Position numbers and translations under genes: made by a program. Shown here piece by piece: positions 25 to 6,562 of a stretch of DNA of 46,366 nt. The notes beneath the pieces are model-generated. The model did not search any database and was not told the origin of the DNA. It saw nothing but the letters and a program-made list of their open reading frames with translations. The DNA comes from Planctomycetota bacterium (GTDB lineage Bacteria > Planctomycetota > UBA1135 > UBA2386), in contig VGXW01000004.1 of NCBI GenBank assembly GCA_016873195.1, positions 1-46,366 of the forward strand, written 5' to 3'. How positions within the stretch are numbered: the first letter of the stretch is position 1; each line of letters begins with the position of its first letter.

Positions 25-1656
25 ATGGCCGAATCGCCTTCGTCCTTCCCGCAGGTCGACCTGCAGTTCGAACGGCAGACCGGATCGGGCCGCGAGGTGG
101 TGCGGCTGCCGTTCGTGGTCACCGTGCTCGCGGACCTCGCCGGAGCCGCCGCGCTGCAGCCGCTGGGAGAGCGCGGAGTGCTCGCGATCGCGGGACCGAC
201 GTGCGGCGGTGCACTCGCGCAGGTCCGACCCGCCCTCGTGCTCGAGGTCGAGGACCTGCTCGGCGGAACGGACGGTGGGTTCCGGGTCGAACTCGGCTTC
301 GGTTCGCTCGAGGACTTCGGTCCGGAGGCGGTCGCGCGCAGGGTGCCGGCACTCGGCGCGCTGCTCGCGCGCCGCGGCGAGTTCCTGCCGGACGTGAACC
401 GCGCGCCGGCCGCGGACCTGCTCGGCGACGTGCTGGCAGCGACCGACCGGCAACGCGGTGCTGCGCCGGGGGACGCGCGCGCCGAGGTCGATCGGGCCAT
501 TTCGCGGCAGCTCGACGCGGTGCTGCACGACCCGGCCTTCCAGGCGCTCGAGGCGTCGTGGCGCGGGCTGCGGCAGCTCGCGCTCGCGGCCGGCGGCAGC
601 GGGCGCGTGCTGGTCCGCGTGCTGCCGGTGCGGCGCGGCGAACTGCTCGCCGACGTGCGGTCCGGGCCCGCCGCGACGCAGCGGGCCCTGTGGCAGCTCG
701 TGCGCCCCGACCGCCACGGCGCCACGTCGCTGTTCGTCCTGGACTTCGCCTTCGGCCGCGGCGCCGAGGACGTCGAACTGCTGCGCGGCCTCGCGGACCT
801 CGCCGTGGCGGCGGGGGCGCCGCTCGTCGCCGGGGCCGCGCCGGAGCTGTGCGGCGTGCCGGGTTTCCCCGAACTCGGCGCGATGCGGCGGTTCGACGCG
901 GTGTTCGACAAGGAGCGGCCCGAGAACGCGCGCTGGACGACGTTCCGCGGCGAGGACCGGTCGCGCTGGACCGCGCTCGTGCTGCCGCGCTGGTGCGCGC
1001 GGCCGCCGCACCGGCCCGGCGACGCAGCGGACGGGGCGTTCGCGCACGCCGAGGTGGTGCTCGGGGCGGCCGACCGGCCGTGGGGCAACGGGGCGTGGTC
1101 GGTCGCGGCCTCGATCGCGCGCGCGGTCGCTCGCACCGGCTGGCTCGGCGACGGCGACCTGCGGGCGGCGGGCGGCGGCGGGACGGACGGGGACCTCGAG
1201 GTGGAACTCGATGCGGAGCGGGGGAGCCAACTGCAGCGCCACGGCCTGCTGGCGCTGCTGCCGCCCGGCGCCGCGGCGGCAGGCTTGCGCGCGAGCACCG
1301 TGCACCGGCCGAAGCAGTTCACCGACGAGGCGGCCACGGCGAGTGCGTTCCTGTCGGCGCAGCTCGCGCAGCAGATCGCGCTGTCGCGCCTCGGCCATCA
1401 CCTCGCGGCGATGCGCGCTGCGGGCGCCGGGGGCAGCGCGGCCGAGTGGCAGCAGCGGTTCTCGCAGTGGCTCGATCGCTACGTCGGCGACGACGGTGCG
1501 CCCGCCGCGGCGCGCGCAGGGCGGCCGCTGCGCGAAGCCTACGTCGAGGTCGAGCCGGACCCGCGTGCGCCCGGCCGGCTGCGCGTCGTGCTCGGCATCT
1601 GCACCGGTGCCGAACCCCATCCCGACGGGTTCGCGCAGCTGGTCTTCGAGGTCTGA
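25..1656 (+). CDS. TssB-TssC fusion-like type VI secretion sheath protein
   Basis: The protein (543 aa) looks like both contractile-sheath subunits of a type VI secretion system in one chain. Residues 29-40 (PFVVTVLADLAG) and 94-110 (SLEDFGPEAVARRVPAL) match the TssB core pattern. Residues 163-186 (LDAVLHDPAFQALEASWRGL) match the TssC pattern, followed by a WTTFRGEDRSR...LVLPR block and WGNGAWSVAA near residues 308-370 and a PLREAYVEVE segment near the C-terminus. TssB is usually about 170 aa and TssC about 490 aa, so both halves are compact. Sheath subunits assemble in the cytoplasm and contract to drive the Hcp tube. The ATG at 25 is plausible, but the frame is open to base 1, so an upstream start outside the window cannot be excluded. 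No other tss gene is visible here; partners would lie upstream. Confidence 0.7.
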   Translation: MAESPSSFPQVDLQFERQTGSGREVVRLPFVVTVLADLAGAAALQPLGERGVLAIAGPTCGGALAQVRPALVLEVEDLLGGTDGGFRVELGFGSLEDFGPEAVARRVPALGALLARRGEFLPDVNRAPAADLLGDVLAATDRQRGAAPGDARAEVDRAISRQLDAVLHDPAFQALEASWRGLRQLALAAGGSGRVLVRVLPVRRGELLADVRSGPAATQRALWQLVRPDRHGATSLFVLDFAFGRGAEDVELLRGLADLAVAAGAPLVAGAAPELCGVPGFPELGAMRRFDAVFDKERPENARWTTFRGEDRSRWTALVLPRWCARPPHRPGDAADGAFAHAEVVLGAADRPWGNGAWSVAASIARAVARTGWLGDGDLRAAGGGGTDGDLEVELDAERGSQLQRHGLLALLPPGAAAAGLRASTVHRPKQFTDEAATASAFLSAQLAQQIALSRLGHHLAAMRAAGAGGSAAEWQQRFSQWLDRYVGDDGAPAAARAGRPLREAYVEVEPDPRAPGRLRVVLGICTGAEPHPDGFAQLVFEV

Positions 1657-2295: not shown

Positions 2296-2844
2296 ATGGC
2301 GGATTGGCTGACCAGACATTGCTCGGACGAGGTTCCGCCGGAGATCAGCGCGCGCGGGGCCGCCCTCTGCCACAGCAGGCGGGTGATGCTCCGGGAGCTC
2401 GGGGCGCATCGTGCCATGGCGGTCGTGCGCGGCACCATGGACTACACGGTGGTCGTCACGCAGCTCGACTCGCCGCACGCAGTGGTTTGCTCCTGCGAGT
2501 GCCAGTACTTCGCGGACCACTCGATCTGCAAGCACGTGTGGGCCGTACTGCTCACCATCGAGAGCGTGCGCGCGGGCCCTGCCGAGGCGGAGCAGTCCTG
2601 CGCCGATGCCGATGGTGCAGCGCACCCGGCGACGCTGCCGCGCCCGCGGTTCCGAACCGCCGAAACTCCCGAGTGTCCCTGCCAGGGGACGATCACCTTG
2701 GAGATCATCAACCTGGGGGACTACCCGATCGAACTGCACCCGTCGATGCCCATCTGCCAGTTGGTCGTCGAGGAGGTGCGAGGCGTGCCGTTCCGCAACG
2801 ACAGCCAGTTCCAGGGCCAGGTTCGAGCCGTCGGCGGCGGCTGA
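2296..2844 (+). CDS. SWIM zinc-finger protein fused to a dCTP deaminase-like C-terminal fragment
   Basis: The 182-aa protein has two unrelated parts. Residues about 1-90 look like the N-terminal SWIM module found in front of SNF2-type helicases, with the zinc ligands in CSCECQYFADHSICKH (CxC...CxH). Residues about 125-178 (GTITLEIINLGDYPIELHP... through SQFQGQ) resemble the last third of dCTP deaminase/dUTPase-fold proteins, including the LE position that carries the catalytic Glu in Dcd. The upstream Ser/Arg catalytic motif of Dcd is missing, so deaminase activity is not expected. This is probably a deletion-created chimera of two former defence-type genes, although it is an uninterrupted ORF and could be expressed. 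It lies at the left end of the degraded island and is co-directional with it. Confidence 0.6.
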   Translation: MADWLTRHCSDEVPPEISARGAALCHSRRVMLRELGAHRAMAVVRGTMDYTVVVTQLDSPHAVVCSCECQYFADHSICKHVWAVLLTIESVRAGPAEAEQSCADADGAAHPATLPRPRFRTAETPECPCQGTITLEIINLGDYPIELHPSMPICQLVVEEVRGVPFRNDSQFQGQVRAVGGG

Positions 2845-2940
2845 TCGGGGCGCGTGGCTGCGACACCCGAGGCTCGCAACCTCCTTGTTGTGGGCTACAG
2901 TCGGCAGTCCGGGCGGCACCGCCGCCTGCAAACTCGCACG

Positions 2941-2954
2941 GAAGGACTCCCTTG
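2941..2954 (+). promoter_or_regulatory. Ribosome binding site that decides a TTG start
   Basis: GAAGGA at 2941-2946 lies five bases upstream of the TTG at 2952. No ATG or GTG with a better site occurs nearby in this frame. The encoded N-terminus (ARPKK) is typical of the methyltransferase family, which supports the choice. Confidence 0.5.
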
Positions 2955-3473
2955 GCACGACCGAAGAAGAGCGCTCCGGCGGGCGGGCCGCAGCCCGCTG
3001 CCTGCCGTCGACCCGAGGCGTCGTCGCTGCTGCGGCCCGAGGTCGGCACGCAGGCGCAGTTCCCGAAGAAGAAGCTGCCGGTGGCCCAGGCCAGGTCCGA
3101 GGACGTCAGTAAGGTCGGCCGCGACCAGGAGACCAAGGACTGGTACCGTTTCGAACAACCCGGTCTCGACGTGTTCGACCCGGGCGAAGGCACGGCCGAC
3201 CACCGTGCCGCCTACGACGTGCCCTGCCGGATGCTCGACGCCGACTGCAACGGCCTCTGGTCCAAGGCGACGCAGGTCTTCCTCCCGCGCTCCGCCGCGT
3301 GGGACGACCTGCAGCGTGCCTCGAAGGGGCAGTACGACGACACCGTCCGGAGCCACCTCGCCGGCACCACGAGGACGTTGTTCCGCGACGGCGAGCACGG
3401 CCAGGTCGCGATCGAGGTCATCGACTGCGGCAACGAGCTGCTCGTCGTCGACGACGTGAAGGAGGCCAGGTGA
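2952..3473 (+). pseudogene. Type III-like DNA adenine methyltransferase remnant with internal deletion
   Basis: The reading frame from the TTG at 2952 encodes 173 aa. The first part (ARPKKSAP..., RPEVGTQAQFPKKK) matches the N-terminal start I remember for large type III-like Mod methyltransferases. The rest, from DWYRFEQPGLDVFD through HLAGTTRTLFRDGEHGQVAI to CGNELLVV, matches their extreme C-terminus. The SAM-binding and DPPY catalytic region, normally several hundred residues, is absent, and the ends are joined in frame, so this looks like a clean internal deletion rather than a frameshift decay. AAGGA at 2942-2946 supports the TTG start. It overlaps the ATPase start by 4 nt (GTGA), so its translation may now only serve to couple the next gene. 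It cannot methylate DNA as read. Confidence 0.6.
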
Positions 3474-5167
3474 TCGACAAGGTCACGATCCGGAACTGGA
3501 AGCGCTTCGAGCAGATCGAGTTCGACCTCGAACGCCGTCACATCGTCCTCGTCGGGCCGAACAACTGCGGCAAGACCACGGTCCTGCAAGCCATCGCCGC
3601 ATGGGGCTTCGCGCTGCGGCGCTGGCGCCAGACCAATCACGACCTGAACGAGCGGAACGGCTGGCAGAGGATCCCGATCACGCTCGAGCAGTTCGTGCCG
3701 GTCAGCGTCCGGTCGTTCGACCTGCTGTGGCGGGACCGGCAAGCGGGCAAGCCGATCGAGATCGAAGTGAGCTGCGGCACCAAGAGCGTCGGCATGGAGT
3801 TCGAGGCGGATCCCCAGAGCCCGTTCCAGATGTTCGTGCGTCCGACGCACGCCTCGAATGCGCCGTCGATCGAGTCGCTCACGTGCTCGACGTTGTTCGT
3901 TCCCGCGATGACCGGCATGTTGCTCGAAGAGCCGGTGCTCACGAAGCCCAAGATCGAACAGATGCTCGGCCGCAACCGTCCAGGTGAAGTGCTGCGGAAC
4001 CTCGTGGCGGACGTGGCTGGTGATCCCGAGGCGTGGCGTAGCCTCAAGGCCACGGTCGTCGACCTGTTCGGAATCGAGTTGCTCGACCCGGATGCGGCGG
4101 GTGCCGACATCGTCGCGGACTACCGGCAGATCGGCGGGAACGCGCGGTTCGATCTCGCGAGCGCAGGCAGCGGCTTCCAGCAGGTGGTCATGTTGCTGGC
4201 GTTCCTCGAACGGCAGCGCGGTTCGATCCTGCTGCTCGACGAGCCGGATGCCCACCTGCACGTGTTCCTGCAGGAGCGCATCGTGGAGGTCCTGCGCGAC
4301 GCCGCCACGCGTTCGGGTTCGCTGCTCGTCGCTGCGACGCACTCGGAGGTGATCCTGGATTCGGTGGACTACGACGAGATCTGCGTGCTGATGGAGAAGC
4401 CGCAGCGATTGGTCGACGACGCGGGCAAGGCGACGCTGAAGGACGCGCTCCGGGTCATCGACCACGAGGACCTCGCGAAGGCGCGTCTGGTGCCCGGCGT
4501 CCTCTACCTCGAGGACTACACGGATCTCGCGATCCTGCGCGAGTTCGCGCGTGTGCTCGGGCATCCGGCGGCGAACGTGCTCGGCCCGGCGGCGTACTGG
4601 CGCAAGGTCGTCGCGAGTCCGGGATCGAAGCGCCCCGGCATCTCCGCCCAGGATCACTTCGACGCTCTGCGGCTGGCGCGGCCCGGCTACCCGGGCTTCC
4701 AACTCGTCGACGGCGACTCGAAGGAGGAGGGGCCGCGCGACAAGACCTACGGCACTCCACCGAAGCGCCGGTGGCCTCGCTACGAGATCGAGAGCTACCT
4801 GGTGCAGCCCGAATCCCTCGAACGCTTCGTGCTGCGCCACGCCGATCTGGCGGCCGGGCTGGGTCATGTTCAGCGGATGCGTGACAAGATGGCCGAACTG
4901 CTCACGTCCCAGTTCGTCGCCGATCCGATGTCGACCACGGTTCCGGCGCAGGCGGTGCTCAAGGGAACGAAGGCGAGCACGGAGCTGCTGCCGCCGATCC
5001 TGGAGGCCGGCGGCCTGCCCGCCTTCCCGAAGAAGCGGTTCCACGAGCTCGCGGCGCAGATGATGCCCAGCGAGATCCACCAGGACGTGAGGGATGTTCT
5101 CGACGCGATCTGCACGGCGTTCGGTATCCCCCTGGCGTCGCCGGCTCCTGCCGGAGGTGCGCCGTGA
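3470..5167 (+). CDS. OLD-like AAA ATPase with C-terminal TOPRIM-like domain
   Basis: A 565-aa ABC/SMC-type ATPase of the kind found in OLD-family nucleases and type III-like restriction islands. Walker A is GPNNCGKTT (residues 29-37), Walker B is ILLLDEPDAHLH (about 252-263) and the switch histidine is in ATHSEVIL (about 288-295). The C-terminal third has a TOPRIM-like pattern: LYLEDYTDLAIL (about 345-356), LVDGD (about 412-416) and RYEIESYL. OLD-like proteins use ATP-driven dimerisation to control a nuclease and act in anti-phage defence; the exact role here is inferred. The start is the GTG at 3470, preceded by GGAGG at 3461-3465 and overlapping the methyltransferase remnant by 4 nt. The gene appears full length while both flanking partners are truncated. 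Confidence 0.75.
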   Translation: MIDKVTIRNWKRFEQIEFDLERRHIVLVGPNNCGKTTVLQAIAAWGFALRRWRQTNHDLNERNGWQRIPITLEQFVPVSVRSFDLLWRDRQAGKPIEIEVSCGTKSVGMEFEADPQSPFQMFVRPTHASNAPSIESLTCSTLFVPAMTGMLLEEPVLTKPKIEQMLGRNRPGEVLRNLVADVAGDPEAWRSLKATVVDLFGIELLDPDAAGADIVADYRQIGGNARFDLASAGSGFQQVVMLLAFLERQRGSILLLDEPDAHLHVFLQERIVEVLRDAATRSGSLLVAATHSEVILDSVDYDEICVLMEKPQRLVDDAGKATLKDALRVIDHEDLAKARLVPGVLYLEDYTDLAILREFARVLGHPAANVLGPAAYWRKVVASPGSKRPGISAQDHFDALRLARPGYPGFQLVDGDSKEEGPRDKTYGTPPKRRWPRYEIESYLVQPESLERFVLRHADLAAGLGHVQRMRDKMAELLTSQFVADPMSTTVPAQAVLKGTKASTELLPPILEAGGLPAFPKKRFHELAAQMMPSEIHQDVRDVLDAICTAFGIPLASPAPAGGAP

Positions 5168-5289
5168 CCGGGTTCGAGATCCCGACCGCGATCCTGGGCA
5201 GTGCGTACGCAGAACCGATGGAGCACGGGTGGCTGCTGCCCGACAAGCCAGCGGAGCGGCGAGACGGCCGCCGGCCGTCGACGCGGTAG
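5164..5289 (+). pseudogene. N-terminal stub of a type III restriction helicase-like gene
   Basis: A 41-codon frame starts with GTG at 5164, overlapping the ATPase stop by 4 nt, and ends with TAG at 5287-5289. It reads FEIPTAILGSAYAEPMEHGW and then DKPAERRDGRRPS. This resembles the N-terminal start of large DEAD/DEAH restriction subunits of type III-like systems (pattern: IP.AILNSPYEEP..HW...GRRP), which continue for roughly 900 or more residues. Here the frame stops right after the GRRP motif and runs into the convergent methyltransferase gene two bases later. I read it as the 5' stump of a deleted res gene. The call rests on one short stretch of similarity. Confidence 0.5.
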
Positions 5290-5290
5290 C

Positions 5291-6469
5291 TCACCGCCGC
5301 TCGAGCAGCGTCACCATCTCGACGTGCTCGGTGTGCGGGAACAGGTCGCACAGGCGCACGGCGGCGATCCGGTAGGCCGCGGCCAGCGCTCCGAGGTCGC
5401 GCGCGAGCGACTCGAGCGAGCACGACACGAGCAGCACGCGGGGCGGGGCGGCGGCGAGCACGGCCGCGGTGCCCGGTTCCTGCAGTCCCGCGCGCGGCGG
5501 ATCGGCGACCAGCAGGTCGCACGCGGGCAGCGGTGCACTGCCGAACGTCTGCTCGCGCACCTCGCCGCCGAGAAAGCCGTTCGCCTGCAGGTTGCAGCGC
5601 GCGTCCGCGCACGCGTCCGGCGAACTCTCGACCAGGGTCACGCGGGCGGCGCCGGCGCGCAGCAGCCGCAGGCCGAACGCGCCGATGCCGCCGTAGCCGT
5701 CGACGATGCACAGGCCCCGCACGTCGCCGAGCATCGCGAGCGCCGGCCGGAACAGGATCGCCTCGGCGTGGCGGTTGTGCTGGCAGAAGCTCGTGAACGA
5801 CACGCGCAGCGACAGGCCGGCGACCGCGTCGGTCTGGAAGGTCTGGCCGCGCAGCGGCAGCGGGGGCGGGCCCAGCAGCGCGTTGCCCGGGTCCGGGTTC
5901 ACGTTGAGCACGGCGCCGACGAGGCACAGCGCCCGGCCCTGGTCGTCGCAGAGCCCGCTCGCTGCCTGCCACAGCGCTTCGGCCATGGCCGGGCGTTCGG
6001 AGAAGTCGGCGCGGGTGACCACGAAGCCAGCGAGCAGTTCGTTGCTGCCCGGCATCACGCGGGCGCGGAAGGCGCGCACGAGGCCGCGGTGGGTCGTCTC
6101 GTCGTAGACGGGCAGGCGCAGCGCGCGCAGCAGCTCGCCGGCGCGCACGCCGAGTTCGGTCAGCGCGCGGTGCTGGATGCGGCAGTCGCGGATCGGCTCG
6201 ACGACGTGGCTGCCGGCGCGGTAGATGCCGAGCGTCGCCTGCCGCGCGTGAAGCTGCACGGGATACAGGATCGTCGTGCGGTCGTGGCGCGGGGTGCGCG
6301 GCGGCGGCGCGATCGCGACGTCGACCGCGCCGAGGAACGGCGCCAGCAGCGCGCGCGCGCGCTGCTGCTTCTGCAGCAGTTGCTCGCCGATCGGCACGTC
6401 GAGCCGGCTGCAGCCGCCGCAGCGGCCGAAGTGGGGACAGTGCAGCGGCGTGTCGACGGGCTCGGGCAA
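5291..6469 (-). CDS. RlmD/TrmA-family RNA (uracil-C5) methyltransferase
   Basis: This is a SAM-dependent RNA m5U methyltransferase (392 aa). Near the N-terminus CPHFGRCGGC is the cysteine cluster that holds the 4Fe-4S centre in this family. SFTSFCQHNRHAE is the substrate-loop Gln/Asn motif, VDGYGGIGAFGLRLL is the SAM site, LVADPPRAGL is the DPPR motif, and LLVSCSLESLARDL carries the nucleophilic Cys. There is no N-terminal TRAM domain, unlike E. coli RumA. I chose the TTG at 6469, which leaves the cluster close to the N-terminus; a GTG at 6544 would add 25 residues and run into the divergent gene's promoter. The target (23S rRNA or tRNA) is not decidable from sequence alone. It is convergent with the restriction-gene stub. 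Confidence 0.85.
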   Translation of the reverse strand: MPEPVDTPLHCPHFGRCGGCSRLDVPIGEQLLQKQQRARALLAPFLGAVDVAIAPPPRTPRHDRTTILYPVQLHARQATLGIYRAGSHVVEPIRDCRIQHRALTELGVRAGELLRALRLPVYDETTHRGLVRAFRARVMPGSNELLAGFVVTRADFSERPAMAEALWQAASGLCDDQGRALCLVGAVLNVNPDPGNALLGPPPLPLRGQTFQTDAVAGLSLRVSFTSFCQHNRHAEAILFRPALAMLGDVRGLCIVDGYGGIGAFGLRLLRAGAARVTLVESSPDACADARCNLQANGFLGGEVREQTFGSAPLPACDLLVADPPRAGLQEPGTAAVLAAAPPRVLLVSCSLESLARDLGALAAAYRIAAVRLCDLFPHTEHVEMVTLLERR

Positions 6470-6562
6470 GGCGGGGCATGCTACCGCGTTGTCGGCGCAG
6501 TCGTCGCTGTCGCCGCAGGTTGGTCGCGGACCTCTGCGGGGCACTTCGTTAGACTGCCGCCG

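What the first reader, a model, noticed from the sequence alone, without database searches (positions are those of the whole stretch)
2296..5289. Eroded phage-defence island that has kept only one intact gene, an OLD-like ATPase
Four co-directional frames in 3 kb all look defence-related. Three are fragments: a SWIM module joined to a dCTP deaminase tail, a type III-like methyltransferase lacking its catalytic core, and a 41-codon stub of a restriction helicase. The only full-length one is the OLD-like ATPase. Coupled overlaps (GTGA) between methyltransferase remnant, ATPase and stub show that the original operon order was Mod, ATPase, Res. Loss of Mod and Res together with retention of the ATPase suggests that this gene has a use of its own, or that decay is very recent.
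Basis: partly seen in the sequence, partly recalled or inferred. Interest (0 to 1): 0.6.

Follow-up and report, generated by a model that had tools for sequence, protein, structure and literature searches.

The report
Methylase operon stripped to its middle gene
A three-gene bacterial defence operon (methylase, OLD-type ATPase-nuclease, restriction enzyme) has lost almost all of its two outer genes while the middle gene stayed whole, and unrelated bacteria show the same outcome with different break points, which suggests that the middle gene works on its own.

Summary
At 2952-5289 lies the wreck of a coupled operon Mod–OLD ATPase–BPTD_3080 Res. Mod (P0001) keeps its first ~44 and last ~110 residues, joined in frame; both catalytic motifs are gone. 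Res keeps codons 1-39. The OLD gene (3470-5167, 565 aa) and both 4-base overlaps are intact. About 40 relatives from many phyla hold the complete operon, which proves the inferred order.

New here: the same end state recurs. In L129, L100, L075, L082 and L067 (Beta- and Gammaproteobacteria, Gemmatimonadota) and in same-family L002, Mod and Res are reduced to stubs or lost, with different break points, around an intact OLD gene; L072 and L108 are part-way. The tree needs at least 5-7 separate collapses. Four of four Mod N::C fusions stay in frame, and the window's Mod remnant decays faster than its OLD gene. The OLD gene thus looks like a self-sufficient module, probably a backup abortive-infection effector, translated through a leftover Mod leader. 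Function is untested; my searches used the OLD gene as bait, and the window's loss is fairly recent.

The SWIM–dCTP deaminase frame is real but is a separate chimera of two remnants, not an operon member.

The parts
2296..2844 (+). 182-aa chimeric ORF: N-terminal SWIM module of a large SNF2-type helicase joined in frame to the last ~60 residues of a dCTP deaminase; a neighbouring remnant, not a member of the operon
   Evidence: SWIM PF04434 E=4e-7; residues 7-120 match the N-termini of ~1100-1225 aa proteins and 118-180 match the C-termini of ~200-230 aa dCTP deaminases (61%); no sampled genome has both in one frame; no counterpart in complete Mod-OLD-Res loci
2952..3473 (+). Mod remnant (173 aa): Mod residues 1-~44 (about 2952-3089) joined in frame to the last ~110 residues (about 3141-3470); DPPYG and DPTCGSGT motifs deleted
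   Evidence: two-part match to full-length Mod; Mod in complete loci is PF01555 / PADLOC MTase_III
3470..3473 (+). GTGA: Mod stop overlapping the ATPase start (4-base overlap), kept from the complete operon
   Evidence: sequence; the same -4 overlap in 34 of 49 loci with Mod
3470..5167 (+). intact OLD-type ABC ATPase-Toprim protein, 565 aa (Walker A GPNNCGKT, LLLDEPDAHLH, ATHSE; Toprim-like E348, D352, D414xD416, E439/E441)
   Evidence: AlphaFold2 pLDDT 92.1, pTM 0.87; best PDB match is the OLD nuclease 6P74
5164..5167 (+). GTGA: ATPase stop overlapping the Res start
   Evidence: sequence; -4 in 36 of 51 ATPase/Res junctions
5164..5289 (+). Res stub: first 39 residues of a BPTD_3080-family restriction protein, then 2 new codons and TAG
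   Evidence: Res of a complete locus scores 1019 bits against NF046055 (cut-off 800)
5291..6478 (-). TrmA/RlmD-type RNA methyltransferase gene whose 3' end abuts the Res stub and so marks the right border of the deletion
   Evidence: PF05958; coordinates

Best explanation
The window holds a stripped Mod-OLD-Res operon. SHOWN: relatives carry a three-gene, translationally overlapping operon of a type III-like methyltransferase, an OLD-type ABC ATPase-Toprim protein and a BPTD_3080-family helicase-nuclease. In the window Res is cut down to its first 39 codons, and about 750 residues of Mod are deleted in frame, leaving the Mod start, its last ~110 codons and the GTGA overlap into the OLD gene. 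The OLD gene is whole. The same kind of collapse occurred separately in other bacteria. INFERRED: the retained Mod start and tail act as a leader through which ribosomes reach the OLD start codon, so surviving deletions are in-frame ones. Res must go before or together with Mod, because Res without methylation would cut the host. The OLD protein is a self-regulated sensor-nuclease: its ABC ATPase domains hold the Toprim nuclease inactive until an infection cue appears, then it cleaves nucleic acid and aborts infection. Beside an active restriction system it would be a backup for phages that evade restriction, as proposed for OLD-ABC genes in BREX. Because it does not need Mod or Res to be restrained, it can outlive them, and lone OLD genes can arise this way.
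For: Complete operons: L049/L061, L050/L088, L051 and about 37 more; Res = NF046055 above cut-off. Recurrent stripping with different remnants: L129 Mod 1-67+836-893 and Res 1-31; L100 Mod N-terminus plus last few residues; L075 last 23 Mod residues and Res 5-40; L082 Mod 755-893 and Res 4-25; L067 no Mod and Res 1-99 (on a 5.7-Mb chromosome-level record); L002 last ~20 Mod residues. Parsimony needs 5 changes (strict set of 7 loci) or 7 (with L072, L108), the latter forced by starred branches. All four Mod N::C fusions (window, L129, L100, L108) are in frame ((1/3)^4 = 0.012) and keep the 4-base overlap. Within-locus decay: the window's Mod tail keeps 33/47 conserved columns (42 intact loci 0.878-1.0) against 119/139 for its OLD gene (Fisher p=0.028; p=0.009 counted since the L002 split); L082 8/47 lost against 4/139 (p=0.002). 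L087 and L090 have lost recognisable Mod and nearly all Res but keep 136/139 and 134/139 OLD columns. OLD dN/dS is 0.23 (L067-L071), 0.15-0.17 (L082, L075, L087 against L071) and 0.07 in a solitary pair (L118-L122). No other Mod or Res of this type was found in the window's genome. Fold.
Against: The loci were found with the OLD gene as bait, so its survival is partly built in. In the reverse check the Mod-Res loci without it (about a dozen) show no OLD remnant, but that sample is small. The window's OLD gene has itself drifted (0.856 of conserved columns; dN/dS 0.35 against L002), so some relaxation is possible. Several collapses are recent (L067's Res stub differs from L071 at dS 0.07), and there the intact OLD gene proves little. 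L002's Mod remnant is only ~20 residues. No profile for the OLD-type Toprim matched. TM-scores to solved OLD structures are low (0.31-0.38). Nothing about function, trigger or expression was measured.
Confidence: 0.68

Rival explanations
1. Plain decay. Mod and Res were lost and the middle gene has simply not been hit yet; it has no use of its own, and the recurrence reflects a search that could only find loci with an intact OLD gene.
For: All loci were recruited with the OLD protein. L067, L129 and L072 look recent (Res stub dS 0.07; L072 Mod tail 46/47 columns kept). The window's OLD gene shows elevated change.
Against: In the window and L082 the Mod remnant decays faster than the OLD gene, the reverse of intact loci (pooled 29/1974 against 209/5838 columns lost). 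L087 and L090 keep the OLD gene after all trace of Mod is gone. Fusions are 4/4 in frame. No decayed OLD gene was seen between intact Mod and Res.
Confidence: 0.22
2. A genuine compact system: the shortened Mod and Res peptides are retained as functional small proteins (leader, antitoxin or regulator) of the OLD protein.
For: Similar architecture (Mod N::C stub, OLD, Res stub) in the window and in the unrelated L129; mini-ORFs with plausible ribosome-binding sites and 4-base overlaps in window, L075, L100, L129.
Against: Retained parts differ in every locus (Mod 0 to ~155 aa, Res 0 to 99 aa) and the window stub has lost conserved residues (33/47 kept). No shared peptide core exists. L067, L087 and L090 have no Mod piece next to the OLD gene.
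Confidence: 0.06
3. Assembly artefact: collapsed or mis-joined metagenome reads produced the internal deletions.
For: The window is one contig of an 809-contig metagenome genome.
Against: Fusions are in frame, codon-position composition is that of coding DNA in every remnant, the Mod remnant has age-related substitutions, and the same state occurs in independent assemblies including a chromosome-level record (L067).
Confidence: 0.03

Closest known systems
OLD family nucleases, Class 1 (single genes: P2 Old, T. scotoductus OLD, E. coli YbjD)
   Same: One ORF with ABC ATPase and C-terminal Toprim-like domain, similar size; the best fold match is TsOLD 6P74. In the window it now stands as a single intact gene.
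   Different: Its close relatives sit inside Mod-Res operons, whereas Class 1 is described as single genes away from other defence genes (PMC10568477). Only the ATPase core matches existing profiles well.
BPTD_3080-family restriction systems (Mod + NF046055 helicase-nuclease)
   Same: Mod and Res remnants derive from it; complete relatives pass the NF046055 cut-off. Plasmids in M. avium and Agrobacterium carry Mod-Res without the OLD gene.
   Different: The window has no functional Mod or Res; about 40 relatives carry an extra OLD gene between them.
OLD-ABC auxiliary or 'backup suicidal effector' genes in BREX and BREX-related systems (PMC12839542)
   Same: An OLD-ABC gene embedded in a methylation-based defence operon; a distant relative of this ATPase lies between pglX and pglZ in a Nostoc BREX locus.
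   Different: There the core system is intact; here it has been stripped away repeatedly and the OLD gene persists.
PARIS (AriA/AriB) and Gabija (GajA/GajB)
   Same: OLD-type ATPase plus Toprim chemistry; AriA is the top PADLOC profile for the window protein (81 bits, ATPase part only).
   Different: No separate Toprim gene (AriB) and no UvrD-like helicase (GajB) next to it.
Type III m4C systems with an extra ATPase (PMC8259958)
   Same: A third, ATPase gene accompanies mod and res.
   Different: That one is an SF2 helicase-like gene 5' of mod, not an OLD protein between mod and res.

Membership tests
OLD family (ABC ATPase + Toprim) | ABC-type ATPase with Walker A, Walker B/D-loop and H-loop | tested here: met
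   AAA_21/AAA_15 above cut-off; GPNNCGKT, LLLDEPDAHLH and ATHSE invariant or nearly so in 76 sequences
OLD family (ABC ATPase + Toprim) | C-terminal Toprim domain with conserved acidic residues | tested here: inconclusive
   E348, D352, D414xD416, E439/E441 conserved; Foldseek aligns over OLD and GajA lengths, but profile PF20469 found nothing in the genome and TM-scores are 0.31-0.38
OLD Class 1 | single gene without partner defence genes | tested here: met
   true of the window today (no working Mod or Res there or found elsewhere in the genome); not true of its close relatives
BPTD_3080 restriction system | full-length Res passing NF046055 | tested here: not met
   only 39 residues remain; met in relatives
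BPTD_3080 restriction system | Mod with catalytic DPPY and DPxCGSGT motifs | tested here: not met
   both motifs deleted in P0001
PARIS | AriA next to a separate Toprim nuclease AriB | tested here: not met
   no such gene beside it
Gabija | GajA followed by UvrD-like GajB | tested here: not met
   next gene is the Res stub, then an RNA methyltransferase
OLD family | nuclease activity and anti-phage effect | not testable with these tools
   needs the bench

The most novel reading that the evidence does not exclude
Embedded OLD genes are repeatedly liberated from Mod-OLD-Res operons by in-frame deletion of the methylase and loss of the nuclease. This would be a general route by which solitary (Class 1) OLD genes arise, with the leftover Mod fragment serving as a translational leader.
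Probability: 0.4. Interest if true: 0.7.

Novelty: new variant of a known kind. Interest (0 to 1): 0.55.

Why it matters
OLD proteins are sorted into classes by their gene neighbourhood, and a standing question is whether single OLD genes defend on their own (PMC10568477, PMC13261556). Here the same gene lineage is seen embedded, half-stripped and alone, so the question can be asked of close pairs such as L067 (stripped) and L071 (complete). It also argues against a PrrC-like arrangement in which the embedded protein is kept safe only by its restriction partner.

Tried and rejected
(1) First genome-contig scan with the single protein found nothing; the alignment scan worked. (2) A2 against viral contigs found no relatives; A1 found 32, mostly distant; none in the phage collection. 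The family is not obviously phage-borne. (3) PARIS, Gabija, Septu and MADS were considered because of profile hits; all match mainly the ATPase core and partner genes are absent. (4) PF20469 OLD Toprim profile: no match in the genome. (5) Idea that the SWIM-dCTP ORF is a fourth operon gene: no counterpart in complete loci, two unrelated parents. (6) Conserved mini-gene system: remnants differ in each locus. (7) dN/dS for window against L002 gives 0.35 at dS 1.2; too diverged to date the deletion. (8) Mod or Res elsewhere in the genome acting in trans: none beyond generic methylase motifs, but the genome is 89% complete.

Full report
WHAT IS THERE. The window is a whole 46,366-base contig (G000:C4) of an 809-contig metagenome genome. 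Between a DUF4760 gene (1728-2159) and an RNA methyltransferase gene on the other strand (from 5291) lie four co-directional frames. The OLD ATPase runs 3470-5167 with a GTG start.

MOD REMNANT. P0001 (2952-3473) has no family hit by Pfam or NCBIfam profile, only a weak PADLOC MTase_III match to the last 97 positions of a 983-position model. Comparison with relatives resolves it: residues 3-47 match the N-terminus and 62-172 the C-terminus of Mod proteins of 900-974 aa in G156, G176 and G449. Everything between, including DPPYG and DPTCGSGT, is missing. The fusion is in frame and keeps the original start region.

RES STUB. 5164-5289 matches residues 1-39 of 1041-1131 aa proteins. The complete relative scores 1019 bits against NF046055, BPTD_3080 family restriction endonuclease (cut-off 800). 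After 39 residues the frame gains two codons and stops one base before the 3' end of the opposite gene.

COMPLETE OPERON. In L049, L050 and L051 the three genes are full length and adjacent or overlapping. A profile-guided scan gave 80 loci; 42 entries have at least 500 residues of both Mod and Res around the OLD gene (L049 and L050 are the same DNA as L061 and L088, so 40 distinct loci). They span Acidobacteria, Nitrospira, Gemmatimonadota, Proteobacteria and others. The Mod stop overlaps the OLD start by exactly four bases in 34 of 49, and the OLD stop overlaps the Res start likewise in 36 of 51. In most examined loci the operon is flanked by what look like ordinary housekeeping genes. Mod-Res loci without the OLD gene have either nothing in the slot or a different gene such as ORF6N.

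RECURRENCE. Several loci match the window's state. L129 (Betaproteobacteria): Mod 1-67 fused in frame to 836-893, OLD, Res 1-31. L100 (Betaproteobacteria): Mod N-terminus fused in frame to its last few residues, OLD, a few Res codons. L075 (Gemmatimonadota): last 23 Mod residues, OLD, Res 5-40. L082 (Gammaproteobacteria): Mod 755-893, OLD, Res 4-25. L067 (Gammaproteobacteria, chromosome-level record): no Mod, OLD, Res 1-99. L002 (same family as the window): last ~20 Mod residues, OLD, no Res. L072 and L108 are part-way (nonsense codon in Res; internal deletions). L087 and L090 have lost almost everything but the OLD gene. On an 87-protein tree the reduced label needs 7 changes with L072 and L108, all forced by starred branches, and 5 in the strict set. 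Window and L002 are sisters next to intact L049. Because the window still has a recognisable 110-residue Mod tail despite a path of 1.53 substitutions per site to L002, their losses were probably separate (inference).

SELECTION. Conserved columns were defined as those at least 90% identical in 42 intact loci. Intact loci lose 29/1974 in the Mod tail and 209/5838 in OLD; the window loses 14/47 and 20/139, L082 8/47 and 4/139. The relation is reversed in both, as expected if Mod is unconstrained and OLD is constrained. The window's private OLD changes are mostly conservative (E to D, L to V/I/M) and spare the catalytic residues. The window's OLD gene is nevertheless less conserved than most, so weak relaxation is not excluded. 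dN/dS is 0.23 for L067-L071, 0.15-0.17 for L082, L075 and L087 against L071, and 0.07 for a solitary pair, L118-L122.

EXPRESSION LOGIC. Four of four loci that keep both ends of Mod have in-frame fusions, and six loci with a Mod tail keep the 4-base overlap into OLD. If OLD is translated by coupling, out-of-frame deletions would silence it; this explains why Mod leaves a start and a tail. This step is inferred.

FUNCTION. The predicted structure (pLDDT 92.1, pTM 0.87) matches the OLD nuclease 6P74 first, then PtuA and GajA; sequence profiles agree on the ATPase part. Published work treats OLD-ABC genes in BREX loci as backup suicidal effectors with their own sensing (PMC12839542) and shows an isolated OLD gene with anti-phage effects (PMC13261556). 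I therefore think the window's protein is a self-contained sensor-nuclease that aborts infection. The trigger and substrate are unknown. Its survival without Mod and Res argues that they are not needed to keep it harmless.

SWIM-dCTP FRAME. P0002 joins the SWIM start of a large helicase to the last ~60 residues of a dCTP deaminase; no sampled genome has both in one frame, and complete operons lack it. It is a separate relic.

LIMITS. OLD was the bait, the reverse survey was small, the genome is 89% complete, and no function was measured.

Noticed in passing
L008 (own genome, C85:2068-3759): A second, solitary OLD gene of the same family (39% identity) sits between an M28-like peptidase gene and a PPK2-like gene; its Toprim motif reads VDRRE, lacking the second Asp.
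   Followed up: partly
L118, L122: In two Anaerolineae-related records the OLD gene lies between parA and parB (Pfam-confirmed in L118), with dN/dS 0.07 between the two copies.
   Followed up: partly
L115, L124, L130: A branch of this OLD family sits directly downstream of multiubiquitin/Prok-E2 and ThiF/JAB genes (Pfam-confirmed in L115), a prokaryotic ubiquitin-like operon.
   Followed up: partly
L013, L055, L056, L120, L137, L060: The same family is embedded in other methylation-based systems: next to HsdS (L013), DUF1156/DUF499 loci (L055, L056, L120, L137), and between pglX and pglZ of a BREX locus (L060).
   Followed up: partly
L089 and L129: An intact Mod-OLD-Res operon (L089) and a stripped one (L129), with OLD genes from different branches, lie at the same kind of site between aroC-like and leuC-like genes in Betaproteobacteria: a possible insertion hotspot.
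   Followed up: no
window 25-1656: A single 543-aa ORF matches VipA and VipB in tandem: a fused type VI secretion sheath protein.
   Followed up: no
L052 7329-7865: The slot between Mod and Res can hold an ORF6N-domain gene instead of the OLD gene; similar 0.5-0.8 kb gaps occur in L053, L054 and L028. The slot looks like a cargo site.
   Followed up: partly
L126 2756-4358: An OLD-like ATPase gene plus a DUF3226 gene (possible AriA/AriB-like pair) lies immediately upstream of this family's OLD gene.
   Followed up: no
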